Shown here one piece after another: positions 9,593-59,552 of a stretch of 64,000 nucleotides of DNA. The position numbers were made by a program, and so were the translations under genes. The notes under the pieces are model-generated. The model worked only from the letters and a program-made list of their open reading frames with translations, was not told where the DNA came from and ran no database searches. This stretch comes from Paraphysoderma sedebokerense (Eukaryota > Blastocladiomycota > Physodermatomycetes > Physodermatales > Physodermataceae): positions 162,304-226,303 of the forward strand of contig JAHLJZ010000036.1 in the NCBI GenBank assembly GCA_025602915.1. The letters are read 5' to 3'. Positions within the stretch are counted from its first letter, which is position 1. Each line of letters begins with the position of its first letter.

Positions 9593-9959
9593 ACTTTAAA
9601 ATTACAAGCAATTGGTCTTGGGATTCCCATTGTCGAGATGCTATGATAATTAGTTTTGGCAGGCATGAAGTTATTTATGTTACAGATCGTATAATATCGC
9701 GATATGTGTTGATAGATGTACGGTTATACAAAATATATCTAAGAATTGTATCCAAAAGCATGTTTTTGTCCAAATGGGTTGACAAATTGCTAAAGCTTTA
9801 GGAAGAGTTGGTTCCAGCACGCCCTGATCAGGTCATCACCATTTCTCTTCGATCGGCTCGCCACAACAGATATTTAAACTTTAGCTACGCTCTGCCTGGC
9901 TTTGGCGTCTCCGTTTGAAATCAGAACCAAAATAAGTACTCAATGTAAGGTTGCGTATT
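9593..9959. other. intergenic, no gene seen
   Basis: Lies between the ECM16 stop codon and the first tRNA-Leu. AT-rich; nothing recognised. Confidence 0.5.
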
Positions 9960-10041
9960 GCACAGACTGGGACTCGAACCCAGGCGGGCGTGGCCCATCA
10001 GAACTTAAGTCTGACTCCTTAACCAACTCGGACATCTGTGC
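9960..10041 (-). tRNA. tRNA-Leu (UAA)
   Basis: An 82-nt type-II tRNA on the minus strand. The acceptor stem is GCACAGA/TCTGTGC. The D arm, a long variable arm and the T loop GTTCGAGTC are intact. The anticodon stem CAGA/TCTG encloses the loop CTTAAGT, giving anticodon TAA. No intron. It is identical over all 82 nt to the copy at 10521-10602 in opposite orientation. Confidence 0.95.
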
Positions 10042-10520: not shown

Positions 10521-10602
10521 GCACAGATGTCCGAGTTGGTTAAGGAGTCAGACTTAAGTTCTGATGGGCCACGCCCGCCTGGGTTCGAGTCCCAGTCTGT
10601 GC
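10521..10602 (+). tRNA. tRNA-Leu (UAA), second copy
   Basis: Same 82-nt sequence as the minus-strand copy at 9960-10041, with anticodon TAA and an intact cloverleaf including the long variable arm. Together the two form a perfect inverted repeat. Confidence 0.95.
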
Positions 10603-10796
10603 AGACTGAGCTTTAAATAATCATTGCATGATCTTTTTGCCATTTTAGATCTAAGATAAGAGTGGTATGAATTGTATCAAACACAACATAGTTTTCTCGG
10701 CTGCAATCGTGAGACCTCGTAAATTTGAAATGCTTAGGAAAAGATTCAATCAATAAGTTCTATGATCAGATTTATTACAGTCTTTTACATAAATTA

Positions 10797-23540: not shown

Positions 23541-23898
23541 ATTACCGCTTTTGGTGTGTTGATATTTATACCCATAAGCGGGAGCTTAAATATGTTGATA
23601 GTAAACACTCGATCTTCTCATTGAGCTCAAGCACATTTTGCTGTGACCGAGCTCAGGAACCAGTACATAGATGGAGAACTTTTTAAATAATTTTTATTTT
23701 AATACCCATGTGACCCATCTATCGCCGGGTTAGATCCACATATATGAATTTACGAAAAGAAAAACTTAATCAATCCAACACAAATAAATCATCTGTCTAA
23801 CATTCAGAAATCTTCACTTCACATACGTAACCAATCCATCACTTAGACACCAATGCATTCTTATTTTCCAGCTCCACCGTAATGATATAGCCTTCGAC
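23541..23898. other. convergent intergenic, no gene seen
   Basis: Shared 3' region of ACAD8 (+) and the GPI-anchored protein (-). Nothing recognised. Confidence 0.5.
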
Positions 23899-26097
23899 TT
23901 AAGCTTGCAAGAAAACTGCAGCAGCAGCTCCTAAAATGAGAGATAATTTGACAAAGATGCCAGCAGCAAATGCAGACTCGGCATCGTTTTCTGTTTGATT
24001 GTTAATTTGAATGAAGGTAGACGACGACAAGGTAATTAAGACGTACTCTTATTGCCAAAGTCTATAACAATGGTGAAGTCATTTGAGTTTAATTGAGGTG
24101 ACGGAGTTCCGCAACAGATATTGTCAGTAATCACATTATCAACGATACATCAGACGGCGGTTGGAAAAAGAAGTTCACGAAATTACCATCTGCTGTTTTC
24201 GCTATTGTCGAATAAAAAAAAAGAATCAAAAGTTAATAGTTAGCAATCACTGAGTGTTGAACCATTATTACATGGCGGAACGGACAAAGGAAATCGTCAT
24301 TCTTTACGTACGTCCAAGTCCGCCTTCTAAATTGCCGATGTTAAAAAAAGAGAAGATTAGCATGATGAGAAACCACTTCAAATCTCATATCTGAATGTCA
24401 CAACTCACCAGTTGTAGTATCCTCGGCTATTAATTCGACGGAGCGATGTGATTAAAGGAATGGAGATTAGAAACGTCACGCCTAAGGTGGACAGCCATAA
24501 TTATGACAGAGAGAATAAACGAACCAGGAGGGTCATTTGTCGCTATAAGTGCAATGCAATGTTGAAACCAAAGTAAGACGCGAGTTGTTAGATCAAAGTA
24601 GTGTTCATGATGTCTACAGCAGCAACATTAACGAATGAAAAAACGCACCAATTTGATCGACGTTGCCTTATAATGTTATTATAAGAAATAGCAATTGACT
24701 GTTAGAATGCCGAAGTAATTTAGTCGCAATTGTCGCTGCGATTAATGAAAGAACTCACTTGTTCGAGGTGCGGTAGCTGTTGATCAATAACCATTCGAAA
24801 CGAAGGCGAGACAGCAAAAGTCCGTTTAGAATGCTACTATTTCATAGATAAATAAGGACAATTGGACCATAGTGGAAAACTTACAAGTTTGGGTGGTAGT
24901 GCCTTTACACAGGAAGAGCAATAATGAATGCAGAATTGTCAAAACTACGAATATTATTTGTTTAAATGCATGAAGAACGCACCAGGTTGATCAGTAGTGC
25001 CTATGTATGCAGAGGAAAATCGAGGTCAGAGAAATTCAGAAGATATTTGAAATCAAAAGGAAGCATTTGAATGATGAGAAGACTAAAACGTACCGGGTTG
25101 GTTGGTAGTAGCTACTTGTCAAAAGAGGAAAAGTTCGGATGACGAAAGTGTCGGTTAGAAAGAGTACTACGTCTTGCGCAGCAGACCAATGAAAACTTGA
25201 TGCATTACCTTGACCATTCCCACCACCTTTTCGTATTTTAGATGTTGAATGGCGAGAGGAAACAATTAAATATTGCTCAATCATATGTGATGGTTCAATA
25301 AAATTTCATACCGTATGTGAAAGTAGTAGCTGTTGAACGCGGAGTTGAACTCGTGGATTGAGAACCTGCAGTGAATAAGCCTCAAAGTTAACAAAAATCT
25401 GGCTTTGCAACTTATCGACTCTCAAGAAAATGTAGAATTTACCCGTTTGTGTAAACGAGAAGTTGTCTTCATCGGCGAAAGTATACCTTTGCCCAGTGGC
25501 ACCTACAGCATTGATTTGGAGGAAAAAATCATCTCCGTATCCTGACACAGAAAGGTCAGGTGTAATGAAAGCACCAGTGCGTTCATTGAATTGTTGATGG
25601 GTTGAAACAACGAATGCAAAGTTCGGATCAGATCTTCTGAAAATGCTGAGAGAGTATGACAGAACGTCGTTCGGAAGGGTAAACGAAGGACTCAATGTCC
25701 ATGACAATGTACTGCCTAGGTTACTGATGAATGAAAATCAAGTACACCGTAAGTATGACTACTATGATTGCGCATCCAGCTTTGTTGTAAAAAGCGCAAA
25801 GTAAATATACGAACTAGTTGGATCCATAGGGCAATGCAATTATTCCTGTTCAACGGAAAAGAATTGTCAACAGCCAAAGCGACGATGAAGGAACTCAAAG
25901 CAGCTTTGTCAGATAGGATAAGGTTACCTAAATCTCCGGTTCTATATGAAGAACGTTTACATTCAAATTAATTTGGAGTCATAAAATCAAGCAATTGGGA
26001 CAAACGGTACATACGGAGCTCTACGGTACTTCTGATCAGCTACAGCGACAGAGCAGACCATTGCGGTAAGGAGGATGGCGGCGGAGAGTTTCATCAT
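23899..26097 (-). CDS. GPI-anchored Kre9/Knh1-like surface protein with micro-exon-encoded stalk
   Basis: Seventeen exons give 247 residues. Order: 26097-26015, 25941-25928, 25845-25815, 25723-25443, 25365-25312, then eleven micro-exons (listed in the next entry), then 23990-23899. Residues 1-20 are a signal peptide (start MMKLSAAILLTAMVC). Residues about 42-136 look like the Kre9/Knh1 N-terminal beta-sandwich of fungal wall proteins (NLGSTLSWTLSPSF ... DDFFLQINAVG ... DNFSFTQTG). A Ser/Thr-rich stalk follows (GSQSTSSTPRSTATTF), then hexapeptide units such as GTTDQP and GTTTQT. The last exon encodes a hydrophobic GPI-attachment tail (LSLILGAAAAVFLQA). Exon 2 is only 14 nt. The model uses only GT-AG sites and stays in frame throughout, with signal and anchor at the two ends, which is strong internal support. 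Function is inferred to be in the wall or at the cell surface. Confidence 0.82.
24047..25226 (-). other. array of eleven phase-1 micro-exons (18/15 nt)
   Basis: Eight exons of exactly 18 nt (25226-25209, 25111-25094, 25000-24983, 24902-24885, 24776-24759, 24666-24649, 24542-24525, 24426-24409) are followed by three of exactly 15 nt (24326-24312, 24201-24187, 24061-24047). Introns between them are 80-125 nt with normal GT donors and AG acceptors. All are phase 1 on both sides, so each encodes six or five residues and any subset can be skipped without a frameshift. Encoded peptides run GGGNGQ, ATTNQP, GTTDQP, GTTTQT, STAPRT, SNVDQI, ATNDPP, AEDTTT, EGGLG, PKTAD, DFGNK. The second could be 21 nt if the AAG at its upstream edge is the acceptor. 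Confidence 0.8.
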
Positions 26098-27084
26098 CGT
26101 TGTCAATTGTCGATTGGAAGTGCTATTCGAAGGACGTCAACAAACTGTATACAATTTCAGAGTTCGGAAGTCGGAAGTCGGGACAGGGGAAATTGTGGAT
26201 CTGGGATGCATTGTGCATGTGAACTCGGCCCAAGTGAAAGCGATATCCAGACGTGCGAGAAAAGAGAACTTATGCCATCGACTTTGGATCGTTCGTCGTA
26301 GAGAGAGTTAATTCATTACCTTGTAACGTATATCTGATTACAGACTCAATAATATCTATGGATTTTTATCATCAATCCCAGTCCCACATTTGCCTTGGCA
26401 TGTTATCTCTTTGGACAAACGGTCGTGGCAAAGCAAAACGTCCCTTACTTCACCTTATACAATCTCGCCATTTAATTGCATTATCATAGTTAGTACACAG
26501 AACTTGGTAGTGTATGCCAACTGTCAGCTCGGTATAATGTGTCAATCTAACCTCCTTGCCTGCGTTCGCGTTCTCTGAGCTTACATGGCTCCGCGTTTCG
26601 GTGAGAACCCGAAAATGAACTTATACACTGTATGAATATAATGTCCTAAATAAAGCGAATCAGAACAAGAGTCAGATAACCGAGATAAGCCGAGATAAGC
26701 CTCGACTTTATCGTTATGATTGTGTCGGCTGCGGGCCTCAACGGAGACGCATATCCATGGTTGGTCCAGGTAGGAATCGGCAACCTGGGATGGTACAGCG
26801 ATGTTTAAAATCCGACAATTAAATCAGCTAGCAGCATCATGATCAACTGGGCACTAAATATAGCTTCCTCCGAGTAGTCAACGTTATGCTCCTGTCTCCA
26901 TCAACGATTCTATACGTTTTATTTACTGAGACTACAGGAAATTCTTTAATCCAAGGTATTTTACATAAGGTGAGAAAACATTGAATTTGCAAGCTAGATA
27001 AAACAAATGACTTAATCCTAAACCTAAATTATTGAGAGTTTCGTAGAGCAAATACAACTATCAGACACACAGCGTCATTCAAAT
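26098..27084. other. intergenic, no gene seen
   Basis: Nearly 1 kb upstream of the GPI protein gene. It includes a 10-bp direct repeat (two copies of CGAGATAAGC at 26681-26700). No coding sequence recognised. Confidence 0.45.
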
Positions 27085-35617: not shown

Positions 35618-37496
35618 TTATGCGCGTCGCTTGGCAGCTCTTGGATCTTCGCCTTCAGATTGCGGAGGTGGCGGTCGTTTTCGTGGTCTTATTTAGTACA
35701 AAAAAAAAGGAGTCAAGTGAGTGATGAATCCAGAAACGCGGAGGTAGGATATAGAATAATTAGTTACAATTCATAATCGTAATCAATAAGCGGACTTTTC
35801 TGTCCCTCTGGAGGCTTTTGAGATGGTGGCGGCGGTCGCATCGGCGGTCGCCCCATGGGAGGTCGAAAACCTGAAAGTGAACGTAAGGTTAGAGGTCACA
35901 TAGAGCTACTATAGAGCAGACTTAGCGATGTTAAGCAACAGCGCATGATAATTACCATCCTCGCCGTAATACCTAATGCAACAAGAAGAAAAATAGAAAA
36001 CCGAGTGAGTAATGAGAACGTCTAGGACAACCGTCATGAAAGGAAAAGAAAGTGATTTAATAATCATACCCTGGAGGGGGGCGCATCATGGGACCTCGCA
36101 TCATTGGCGGTCTATTGCCCCATGGACCGGGACGAGGTGGACCGTACATCCTGCCCATATGGGGACCAGGGGGTCCTTGATGCATTCGAGGGTCGGGTGG
36201 ACCACGGAAGGGCGGATAAGACCCTTGCGGCATACCAGTCGGCATTTCCTGTGAAAGAGAACGATGCGGTCAGAAATGGCTTCACGAAAGTGATAGTGAC
36301 AACAGAAATACAGATGTTCAATACATACAGGCCGATATCCCTGAGGTGGATAATCCCTGTATTGATCACCATCCGAAGGCGGCGGTCTTTGCGGGGGAAA
36401 TCCTCGTTCGTACGGCCCTGGCCGGTTTGGAGGGGATGCCGCAGCCTGCGCCTTCTGCTGTTCTTCTTGTTCTATCTGCATGGGTCGCAAAAGTTGGTGT
36501 TAGACTTAGAATCGTCGAACTAACCCTCTAGGGGAGTCGAACGATACCTTTTTCTCTGAGTATTCCTCTCTGATCGCCTTCTGCCTTGCTATATACACTT
36601 TCCATGTATGCTCTGTAAATCCATAATTAAAATAGTCGGTGATATCAGCTCCGGGTTTCCTCCATGGCTTATCTTCAAACGAATCAATATCGAGATCTAA
36701 CAAAGAAGTTCCTTCATAAGACGCAACGGCGTTGACATCAACTCCTCCTGAGGGAGCTGGCGCAGAAGGGGTAACAGTAACCGATTCTGGTGTAGCCTCT
36801 GTTGTTGCAGACGGACCAGATTCAGCGGATTGTTGGGATCCTACAACGGAAGAACCATCATTTTGTTAAATCGCGAAATTCCACACATGAGATGGCGATG
36901 TATATAACATTTCGGATATAACGTCTAACAATACCTCTTCTAGCATGAGTGGCCTGTTTTCCTCCAATTTTGAAACTAACCAAATTGGGCCTATGAATCA
37001 AATAACGGGAAAATCGCACGCAACCGACAATAGTTTTTAGCGACTGTTCGAACTGACTGGATTTTGAAAATCATTCAACATACTTTTGAGCAGACGCTGG
37101 CGGAGTTGCGTTATCATCATCTAATATAATATCGATATCCTAATTGTGATATTGTCATCGTTTTGATCGAATGACATTGTCAGATTGAGATAACTTTGAG
37201 GATCCAAACAAAAAGCAGAGCCAAACAAGTTATGATGAATAAGTACTAACCGAATCACTGCTTTCGTCGTCATCACTTGCTTCCATTTCACCTTCCTCTG
37301 TTGTTGATGAGCCATTCTCTGGGCCTGCTGAGTCTACGGAGGCTTGTTCTGAAGCCGCATCCAAATCTTGCGGGGTAGAGACGTCTTCGGAGAGATTAGA
37401 TACCTCATCTCCGAGGGACGGAGGAGTCGATTTTGATTCTGTATCTTTGTCTCCATAGAGAAAATCGTCAATATCGTCATCTTCCAAGGATGCCAT
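35618..37496 (-). CDS. FIP1: pre-mRNA 3'-end processing factor Fip1
   Basis: Subunit of the cleavage and polyadenylation factor that tethers poly(A) polymerase. Nine exons: 37496-37251, 37139-37084, 36990-36935, 36840-36548, 36475-36329, 36248-36070, 35972-35956 (17 nt), 35870-35768, 35687-35618; 388 residues. The acidic N-terminus ([16 protein letters not shown]) is followed by the diagnostic Fip1 motif: [20 protein letters not shown] then [14 protein letters not shown]. The C-terminal half is Pro/Gly/Arg-rich with many PP and MRPP repeats, ending in a basic AAKRRA tail. The final exon was added because a donor overlapping the apparent stop (GAATT|GTAACT) joins in frame to a basic extension; if not spliced, the protein ends YDYEL. 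Confidence 0.93.
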
Positions 37497-57984: not shown

Positions 57985-58068
57985 TCCATTATGGTCTAGT
58001 GGCTAGGATTCCGCGCTTTCATCTACAGGAAGGTCCGCGGCGGCCGGGGTTCGATTCCCCGTAATGGA
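57985..58068 (+). tRNA. tRNA-Glu (UUC) with 13-nt intron
   Basis: Acceptor stem TCCATTA/TAATGGA, D arm, and T loop GTTCGATTC are intact. The anticodon stem is CCGCG/CGCGG. The anticodon TTC is followed by A37 and then an insert at 58022-58034 (TCTACAGGAAGGT), the canonical 37/38 intron position. Removal gives the normal loop CTTTCAC and a 71-nt tRNA. Confidence 0.93.
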
Positions 58069-59552
58069 ATTCTTTTTCGCAACAGTTGGAAAAATTCTTA
58101 CATCTGCTTTTATTTCACAATTTGTACATGTATATAGAATTAAAATCTTAATAAATACAGCATTACAACGACACATTCATATATTCTTCATTATTCGGAG
58201 CAGAATATAGTCTGACAATTACAATGAATAATAAAACAAACTTCACTTAATCTTTTGCTGAAGTACTGAGTACTGAGTAGATTTAAATAAGGATGAGTTG
58301 GTGAAGTATTTAGCCATGGTTAGGAGAATTACATGAGTAAACATAATGTTTTAGCTGTAGATTACATGAAGATTATATAATAAGATTATTGGTTCCTATT
58401 TTCAGTAATCTTTGCTTCGATAAATAGCTAATCTGGAATTACTGAACCTCGGAAATAATAATCTTATGAACTTCACGTGTATTATTCCGGTTTCAACTTA
58501 TAAATCCATCTGTGCTTGTGTACAGAGGAATACTCTTCTCCACCAGGAGGTCTCATAAGTCCTAACACAATTATTCTCGTTTTTAGAGGGAAAAAAAAAG
58601 GTAGTCCCTTCAATAAACTGTCTATCCTACTTAATAGCGGAATTCGGTTTGAATGGAGGACAGTTGCCACAAATTAACAACAATGTATTTGCAAATTTGC
58701 GAATAAAAATTTGCAAAATTTAACCAAGCGCAATTACGTACACTGAAATTTTTTTTGTTCACAGCAACATAGGCTAGCTATAGAACACTAAACTCTTGCC
58801 AAGGAGAGTGACGAGAATAATTGTGTCAGACTTATGAGTTATGAAGATCTTTGCGGAGAAGACTATTCCCCAACAGTCTGCACACAAGCACTGATGGATT
58901 TGTATATAGTAAAGAAACATCACTCTAATCTATAGACTGTTAATCAACAAGCTTTTGTCAAAACAAGGGAAAGCTGAAATCAAGGACTAATATAAGCTAC
59001 ATCTAAAACTCATCTTGTTACAAGTGTAAAACCTCCCAAATATGGTTGCTTATTGCATTCACTTTAAAAGTATCAGTGAAGGCGTATATAACACTGTGTA
59101 CTTGGTGCTATGTCAGTTGTATATTGGTTCTCTATATGTAATACAGTAGTCAACACTGCATGTGTCTATAATGTACTATCTAGCCTGCGTACTGTATATG
59201 GCTATAATTTTCCGTTCAATGTTCTTAATAGGATAAGGGCTCAGCGGTGCGTAGAGAGAAAACTGGAAAAGTATTTGAGCAATTTCTATAAACATTGTGT
59301 TCTATGTGATATCACGGTCAAACGTACGGCCGGGACGGAATAAACTAAGAAATATTTATACGAATACTTTTTGTGTTCCTCTATCATGGAGATATCTAGA
59401 ACGTAAGAACGTAGAAAAGTATCAATTTTTTTAGCGTATAAAATGCCAAGACAATTATTGATACGAAATATTCCCTCTCTAAAATGCACAAAATATTTAT
59501 ATACAGTTTTGATAAAAATAATCATCATGACAGATCTATAAACGGTGTATAT
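58069..59552. other. 1.5-kb intergenic region, no gene seen
   Basis: AT-rich on both strands with only short open frames; nothing recognised. Confidence 0.45.

What the first reader, a model, noticed from the sequence alone, without database searches (positions are those of the whole stretch)
24047..25226. Stalk of a surface protein encoded by eleven consecutive 18/15-nt phase-1 micro-exons
Seen in sequence: eight 18-nt exons then three 15-nt exons, each between GT-AG introns of 56-125 nt, all phase 1 at both ends. They connect a Kre9-like domain to a GPI tail in one frame. Because every unit is symmetric and a multiple of 3, skipping any combination would give stalks from 0 to 63 residues longer with no frameshift. 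That is a possible combinatorial length or glycosylation switch for a cell-surface protein. Such a uniform run of consecutive micro-exons is, to my knowledge, not a described architecture in fungi. It may have arisen by tandem duplication of an exon-intron unit, since TTNQP, TTDQP and TTTQT are alike.
Basis: partly seen in the sequence, partly recalled or inferred. Interest (0 to 1): 0.9.

Follow-up and report, generated by a model that had tools for sequence, protein, structure and literature searches.

The report
Fungal surface-protein stalk, eleven micro-exons
A fungal gene for a secreted, probably wall-anchored protein appears to build its threonine-rich stalk from eleven tiny exons of 18 or 15 letters, most holding one six-residue repeat; such uniform micro-exon runs are better known from animals, but no RNA evidence was available here and the proposed splicing switch is unproven.

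Summary
On the minus strand, eight 18-nt and three 15-nt exons, phase 1 at both ends, lie between GT-AG introns of 56-125 nt and join a signal peptide and beta-rich head to a hydrophobic tail in one open frame (17 exons, 247 aa). A gene finder trained on the rest of the window, without exon-length preference, recovers all eleven. Shuffled sequence gave no micro-exon run above 2.

New: the preceding exon is 54 nt = 3 x 18, and its last 18 nt follow an AG with no intron there. The stalk is best read as a degenerate hexapeptide repeat with introns at repeat boundaries.

Less well supported: 'Kre9-like' (no Pfam match), duplication of exon-intron units (exons alike, introns hardly), and the combinatorial switch. 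Skipping one exon needs an intron of 191-250 nt; 2 of 83 other modelled introns reach 191. 40 of 2048 combinations create a stop. Most likely every exon is included by intron definition. No RNA or orthologue was available.

The parts
26015..26097 (-). Exon 1 (83 nt): start codon and signal peptide
   Evidence: open frame and hydrophobic N-terminus; manual, not found by the gene finder
25928..25941 (-). Exon 2 (14 nt), manual
   Evidence: donor GTAACC is weak (3.01), lower confidence
25815..25845 (-). Exon 3 (31 nt), manual; the gene finder uses only its last 13 nt, in another frame
25443..25723 (-). Exon 4 (281 nt): beta-rich head domain; acceptor at 25723 chosen by frame, the gene finder uses 25715
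   Evidence: no Pfam family
25312..25365 (-). Exon 5 (54 nt = three 18-nt hexapeptide units; last unit 25329-25312 follows an AG but has no intron in front)
25209..25226 (-). Micro-exon 6, 18 nt (GGGNGQ)
25094..25111 (-). Micro-exon 7, 18 nt (ATTNQP); tandem AG acceptor could give 21 nt
24983..25000 (-). Micro-exon 8, 18 nt (GTTDQP)
24885..24902 (-). Micro-exon 9, 18 nt (GTTTQT)
24759..24776 (-). Micro-exon 10, 18 nt (STAPRT)
24649..24666 (-). Micro-exon 11, 18 nt (SNVDQI)
24525..24542 (-). Micro-exon 12, 18 nt (ATNDPP)
24409..24426 (-). Micro-exon 13, 18 nt (AEDTTT)
24312..24326 (-). Micro-exon 14, 15 nt (EGGLG); a 12-nt alternative scores nearly as well
24187..24201 (-). Micro-exon 15, 15 nt (PKTAD)
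24047..24061 (-). Micro-exon 16, 15 nt (DFGNK); weakly supported (1.9 nats)
23899..23990 (-). Exon 17 (92 nt): end of stalk, hydrophobic GPI-signal-like tail, stop codon
   Evidence: 19-aa hydropathy maximum 2.19
23698..23703 (-). ATTAAA poly(A)-like hexamer about 200 nt after the stop
   Evidence: may be chance

Best explanation
This is a 17-exon gene of a fungus for a secreted surface protein: signal peptide, beta-rich head, threonine-rich stalk, hydrophobic GPI-type tail. The stalk is a degenerate hexapeptide repeat ((G/A/S)-T-T-x-x-x at its clearest), and its introns sit at the repeat boundaries. Three repeats are still fused in exon 5, eight have one exon each, and three five-residue units follow. 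Each short intron (56-125 nt) is recognised on its own and removed by intron definition, so all eleven micro-exons are normally included. The equal sizes and phases come from how the stalk grew: either whole exon-intron units were duplicated, or introns entered the same position of successive repeats. Shown: the architecture, its excess over chance, the repeat signal, the coincidence of introns with repeat boundaries. Inferred: constitutive inclusion, GPI anchoring, O-glycosylated spacer function, and the mode of origin.
For: Exact exons and phases; independent recovery by a gene finder trained elsewhere in the window and robustness runs; shuffles and chain scans. Exon 5 is 3 x 18 nt with an AG before its last unit. 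Hexapeptide periodicity: aa lag-6 identity 0.25, p = 0.005; nt lag 18, p = 0.006; exon likeness p = 0.0016. Intron-side splice-site scores of the 12 array introns do not differ detectably from 83 others (p = 0.43 donor, 0.11 acceptor), which suits constitutive introns. Skip introns would be 191-250 nt; 2 of 83 other introns reach 191 nt. Fungi show comparatively low exon skipping, and intron retention exceeded skipping in all but one species of a 65-species survey (PMC6142364, abstract and passages). S/T are 28 of 83 stalk residues.
Against: No RNA evidence and no orthologue. The nt periodicity is not significant if any lag from 9 to 45 is allowed (p = 0.08). Unit 4 (GGGNGQ) and the 15-nt exons fit the repeat poorly. 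Array splice-site medians are nominally lower than elsewhere. Two array introns (9 and 15) show no [CT]T[AG]A[CT] branch-like site 10-60 nt before the acceptor. With a flat length prior, partial skipping scores best. The comparison set of 83 introns is itself predicted by a model with a length prior and a 400-nt ceiling, so the lack of longer introns is partly built in.
Confidence: 0.62

Rival explanations
1. Combinatorial length switch: micro-exons are skipped in varying combinations, giving anchored proteins whose stalk differs by up to 63 residues.
For: All 11 single skips and 2008 of 2048 combinations stay open; exon 5 has an in-frame alternative acceptor at 25330 (score 3.28 against 3.69 for the used one) and exon 7 a tandem acceptor; under a flat length prior a partly skipped path scores best; schistosome MEG isoforms arise by alternative splicing (PMC10399815, start of abstract); a regulated fungal micro-exon exists (Trichoderma Xlr2, PMC11121469, passages).
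Against: Skip introns of 191-250 nt are rare among the introns modelled here (2 of 83 reach 191); comparatively low exon skipping in fungi; symmetry is also what growth by repeat units would leave behind.
Confidence: 0.15
2. Retention switch: failure to remove any one of the array introns truncates the protein before the tail, giving a soluble instead of an anchored form or an mRNA that is destroyed.
For: Each of the 12 array introns, if retained alone, ends the frame after 159-230 residues and without the tail; intron 4 retention gives a 262-residue frame with a different end. Intron retention exceeded exon skipping in all but one of the species surveyed in PMC6142364.
Against: Retention disrupts almost any gene; as a group the array introns have no detectably weaker sites than others; no RNA.
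Confidence: 0.1
3. Gene-model error or decaying gene: part of the array (most likely exons 14-16) is mis-drawn or the gene is a pseudogene.
For: Support for exons 14 and 16 is 1.0 and 1.9 nats; exons 1 and 2 and most of exon 3 were added by hand and not found by the gene finder; no family match.
Against: Open frame over 247 codons and 16 junctions; none of 200 shuffles approaches its score; exons 8 and 12 carry 11 nats each.
Confidence: 0.12

Closest known systems
Schistosome micro-exon genes (MEGs)
   Same: Many very short exons, mostly multiples of three and most often 15 bp (PMC10526429, one passage); secreted products (its abstract start)
   Different: MEG introns are long (100 to almost 5000 bp); here 56-125 nt. 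Animal genes; differential splicing is not known here
Aphid bicycle genes
   Same: Many small internal exons of one phase; found among secreted proteins (PMC9168663, passages)
   Different: Their phase is 2, here 1; CYC motifs there, while this protein has a single Cys, at residue 15 in the signal peptide
Fibrillar collagen genes
   Same: Exons hold whole numbers of repeat units, commonly 54 bp, so skipping keeps frame and register (PMC9320522, passage)
   Different: No Gly-X-Y; the commonest exon here is a third of that size; animal genes
Scattered fungal micro-exons: Phanerochaete P450 genes, Trichoderma Xlr2
   Same: Micro-exons in fungi (PMC1184071; PMC11121469; passages)
   Different: In the passages seen they are single or scattered micro-exons, not a uniform consecutive run that encodes a repeat
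Fungal Ser/Thr-rich GPI-anchored wall proteins, including Kre9/KNH types (recalled, no call)
   Same: Signal peptide, compact head, S/T-rich stalk, hydrophobic tail
   Different: No Pfam match; stalk split into micro-exons

Membership tests
Kre9/KNH domain family (PF10342) | Profile match to the domain | tested here: not met
   PF10342 not reported at max_evalue 10 for the 247-aa protein (filters drop most matches above about 0.1)
Kre9/KNH domain family (PF10342) | Ig-like beta-sandwich head (recalled) | tested here: inconclusive
   Exon 4 alone modelled as all-beta, pLDDT 64.7, best PDB match E 0.14
GPI-anchored surface protein | N-terminal signal peptide and C-terminal hydrophobic tail | tested here: met
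   19-aa hydropathy 1.98 at the N-terminus and 2.19 at the C-terminus, at most 0.7 between; crude test, no GPI or signal-peptide predictor available
GPI-anchored surface protein | Actual GPI attachment | not testable with these tools
   needs biochemistry
Micro-exon genes of the schistosome MEG kind | Run of short exons, multiples of three | tested here: met
   11 consecutive exons of 15 or 18 nt
Micro-exon genes of the schistosome MEG kind | Long introns | tested here: not met
   56-125 nt
Micro-exon genes of the schistosome MEG kind | Differential inclusion in transcripts | not testable with these tools
   no RNA data
Aphid bicycle genes | Internal exons of phase 2 and CYC motifs | tested here: not met
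   12 of 12 array introns phase 1; one Cys in the whole protein
Repeat-per-exon structural genes (collagen layout) | Exon boundaries coincide with repeat-unit boundaries | tested here: met
   54 + 8 x 18 nt in hexapeptide register, aa lag-6 p 0.005; the repeat is degenerate and the nt signal is p 0.08 if any lag is allowed

The most novel reading that the evidence does not exclude
A fungal counterpart of the animal micro-exon genes: one gene that can draw on up to 2008 in-frame stalk variants by micro-exon choice, having arisen from a hexapeptide repeat that acquired one intron per repeat.
Probability: 0.15. Interest if true: 0.87.

Novelty: new variant of a known kind. Interest (0 to 1): 0.64.

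Why it matters
Genes with many exons of similar size and one phase are called rare in most genomes (PMC9168663, passage), and the array-type examples met in these searches are animal. A fungal case with short introns would separate two ideas that are hard to part in animal genes: that such arrays exist for alternative splicing, or that they are the by-product of growing a repeat by exon-intron units. It also asks how a spliceosome handles eleven consecutive exons of 15-18 nt. Annotation pipelines could well lose this stalk and its anchor (inference). The fused units in exon 5 (3 x 18 nt, an AG in place, no intron) make the intron-gain and unit-duplication accounts testable in relatives.

Tried and rejected
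Whole-genome paralogue search: no genome is held. The first unsupervised training diverged through a mis-set intron prior. The second used seed donors of which some came from this gene, and was discarded as circular; it gave seven 18-nt and three 15-nt exons, with a 40-nt exon in place of exon 6. One search replaced it with generic seeds and the region masked. An additive micro-exon chain score was uninformative, since it rarely extends beyond one intron anywhere; replaced.

Intron homology: 66 pairs of array introns against 2850 pairs of 76 others (those of 55-130 nt; 7 of 83 left out). One array pair (13 and 7) scores 30, against a maximum of 32 among the others. Tests of shared ends: 0 of 6 below p 0.05, but post hoc donor features differ (GTG 4 of 12 against 3 of 83, GTNCGT 6 of 12 against 9 of 83). 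In one search, 2 of 11 tests gave p 0.003-0.005 (introns downstream of the 18-nt exons, first 18-20 nt, donor included) and one 0.04 (all 12 introns); those that leave out the donor hexamer gave p 0.09 or more at the 5' end.

Relatives of the head in viral and prokaryotic contigs: 15 and 137 pattern matches, none confirmed, as expected for a fungus. PDB and NCBIfam sequence searches: best E 0.051 and 0.034, unrelated. SP7-type effectors considered and dropped: the passages seen describe a conserved intron before the first repeat, not micro-exons.

Species: not determined. Gti1/Pac2, septin, DHHC, isocitrate lyase, acyl-CoA dehydrogenase and DUF1688 genes fit a fungus; that Gti1/Pac2 is fungal is recalled.

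Full report
What was claimed.

Check of the observation. The exons are where stated, each with AG before and GT after. The introns between them are 97, 93, 80, 108, 92, 106, 98, 82, 110 and 125 nt, then 56 nt to the last exon and 85 nt before the first. Adding the upstream exons by hand gives 17 exons from 26097 to 23899 and an open frame of 247 residues: signal peptide, head, stalk, hydrophobic end. Thirteen of the 17 exons are 31 nt or shorter. The first three exons (83, 14, 31 nt) and the acceptor of exon 4 are manual: the gene finder starts at 25827 and enters exon 4 at 25715, and the donor of exon 2 (GTAACC) is weak.

Is it more than chance? I trained a simple coding/splice/branch-point Viterbi model on the window outside 23600-26200, with generic seeds and no preference for exon length. 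It models 83 introns elsewhere and 65 internal exons, of which 2 are 18 nt or shorter. Applied to the region it returns exactly the eleven micro-exons. Shuffling the 1321 nt between exon 5 and exon 17 left any path in 89 of 200 cases, with a best score of -18.9 against +11.8 and runs of at most 2. As a second control I drew 300 native stretches and left out 28 that overlapped the gene. Of the other 272, 122 had a path and 25 scored as high or higher, presumably because they contain real long exons; none had a run above 2. A direct scan for chains of 15/18-nt phase-1 exons finds 12 here and at most 2 in 60 Markov sequences; with lengths 12-27 allowed, at most 4 (its site floors were set just below the weakest sites of this array). 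The array is stable to costs of -3 to -6 and to dropping the branch term. It loses exons at harsher costs, and under a flat prior allowing introns up to 1500 nt the best path keeps only four internal exons. So the splice sites are there, but it is the local intron-length distribution that argues for using all of them.

What it is. The scan's twelfth member lies inside exon 5: 25329-25312 is another 18-nt unit (ATTFTY), preceded by CAG but with no intron in front. Exon 5 is 54 nt, three units long. Exons 5-13 together are eleven hexapeptide units: GSQSTS STPRST ATTFTY GGGNGQ ATTNQP GTTDQP GTTTQT STAPRT SNVDQI ATNDPP AEDTTT. Lag-6 identity of the peptide is 0.25 (codon shuffle p 0.005) and lag-18 identity of the DNA gives p 0.006, though p 0.08 if every lag from 9 to 45 is allowed. 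Exons 7-13 resemble one another beyond codon composition in summed identity (p 0.0016), not in the best pair (p 0.30). The repeat is degenerate, and unit 4 and the 15-nt exons hardly fit it. S and T make up 28 of 83 stalk residues; there is no N-glycosylation sequon in the stalk, so O-glycosylation is the likelier modification (inference).

The head. The full protein matches no Pfam family above background: the only rows at max_evalue 10 were SOG2 (0.26) and Mucin (3.7), not Kre9/KNH. Exon 4 alone has no meaningful NCBIfam or PDB sequence match. Exon 4 was folded without an alignment: seven strands, no helix, pLDDT 64.7. The best solved matches are mostly fibronectin-type domains at E 0.14 or weaker, none at 0.001 or better. 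'Beta-sandwich-like' is a fair guess; 'Kre9-like' is not established.

How it works. The 12 array introns have a median length of 95 nt against 83 for the 83 others (p 0.10) and no detectable difference in intron-side site strength (p 0.43 and 0.11, medians nominally lower). Skipping a single micro-exon would need an intron of 191-250 nt; 2 of 83 other introns reach 191. Those 83 come from a model with a length prior and a 400-nt ceiling, so this comparison is partly built in. In a survey of 65 eukaryotes (PMC6142364, abstract and passages), fungi show comparatively low exon skipping. Intron definition with constitutive inclusion is therefore my first choice. The switch is not excluded: all single skips and 2008 of 2048 combinations stay open, while 40 create a stop at junction 9-14 or 9-17. 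Retaining any one of the array introns truncates the protein and loses the tail, which is the basis of a rival retention switch.

How it arose. Array introns do not align with one another beyond background. That does not exclude duplication: a study of basidiomycete amylase genes reports that intron sequences diverge too fast to be aligned even between closely related species (PMC3584928, passage). The introns downstream of the 18-nt exons share their first 18-20 nt more than sets of other introns (p 0.003-0.005), but these are 2 of 11 tests, and without the donor hexamer p is 0.09 or more. I leave unit duplication and repeated intron gain open, with a slight lean to duplication.

Comparison with the known. 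Layout and size match schistosome MEGs (exons mostly multiples of three, most often 15 bp; PMC10526429, passage), but introns are short here. Bicycle genes share the single phase, though it is 2 there (PMC9168663, passages). Fibrillar collagen genes share the principle of whole repeat units per exon, commonly 54 bp (PMC9320522, passage). In fungi, micro-exons of 2-10 aa occur in Phanerochaete P450 genes (PMC1184071, passages). A 2024 paper states that functional micro-exons had not been described in filamentous fungi before Xlr2 and had been tested experimentally only in fission yeast (PMC11121469, passages). I found no report of a consecutive uniform array in a fungus in the searches. These cover open-licence papers only, and I saw listings of 20 of 4,857 papers, 15 of 68 and 15 of 86.

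Limits. No RNA, no orthologue, no genome, species unknown. All statements on inclusion, anchoring and glycosylation are inference.

Noticed in passing
window 9959-10041 (-) and 10521-10603 (+): Two tRNA-Leu(TAA) genes in opposite orientation, perfect 83-nt inverted copies of each other with 479 nt between; an inverted duplication that seems recent.
   Followed up: partly
window 57985-58069 (+): tRNA gene for which ARAGORN reports an odd four-base anticodon (ttca), perhaps an intron or a mis-drawn loop.
   Followed up: no
window 25112-25120 (-): Tandem acceptor AAG-TAG before micro-exon 7; the upstream AG would add three nucleotides in frame.
   Followed up: partly
window 25928-25941 and 25815-25845 (-): Two further very short exons (14 and 31 nt) at the 5' end of the same gene in the manual model.
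   Followed up: partly
window 26674-26701: Short tandem repeat of a 10-mer, 2.9 copies, about 580 nt upstream of the start codon.
   Followed up: no
window 35871-36069 (-): A single 17-nt exon candidate between two well-scoring introns in another gene model; not a multiple of three.
   Followed up: no
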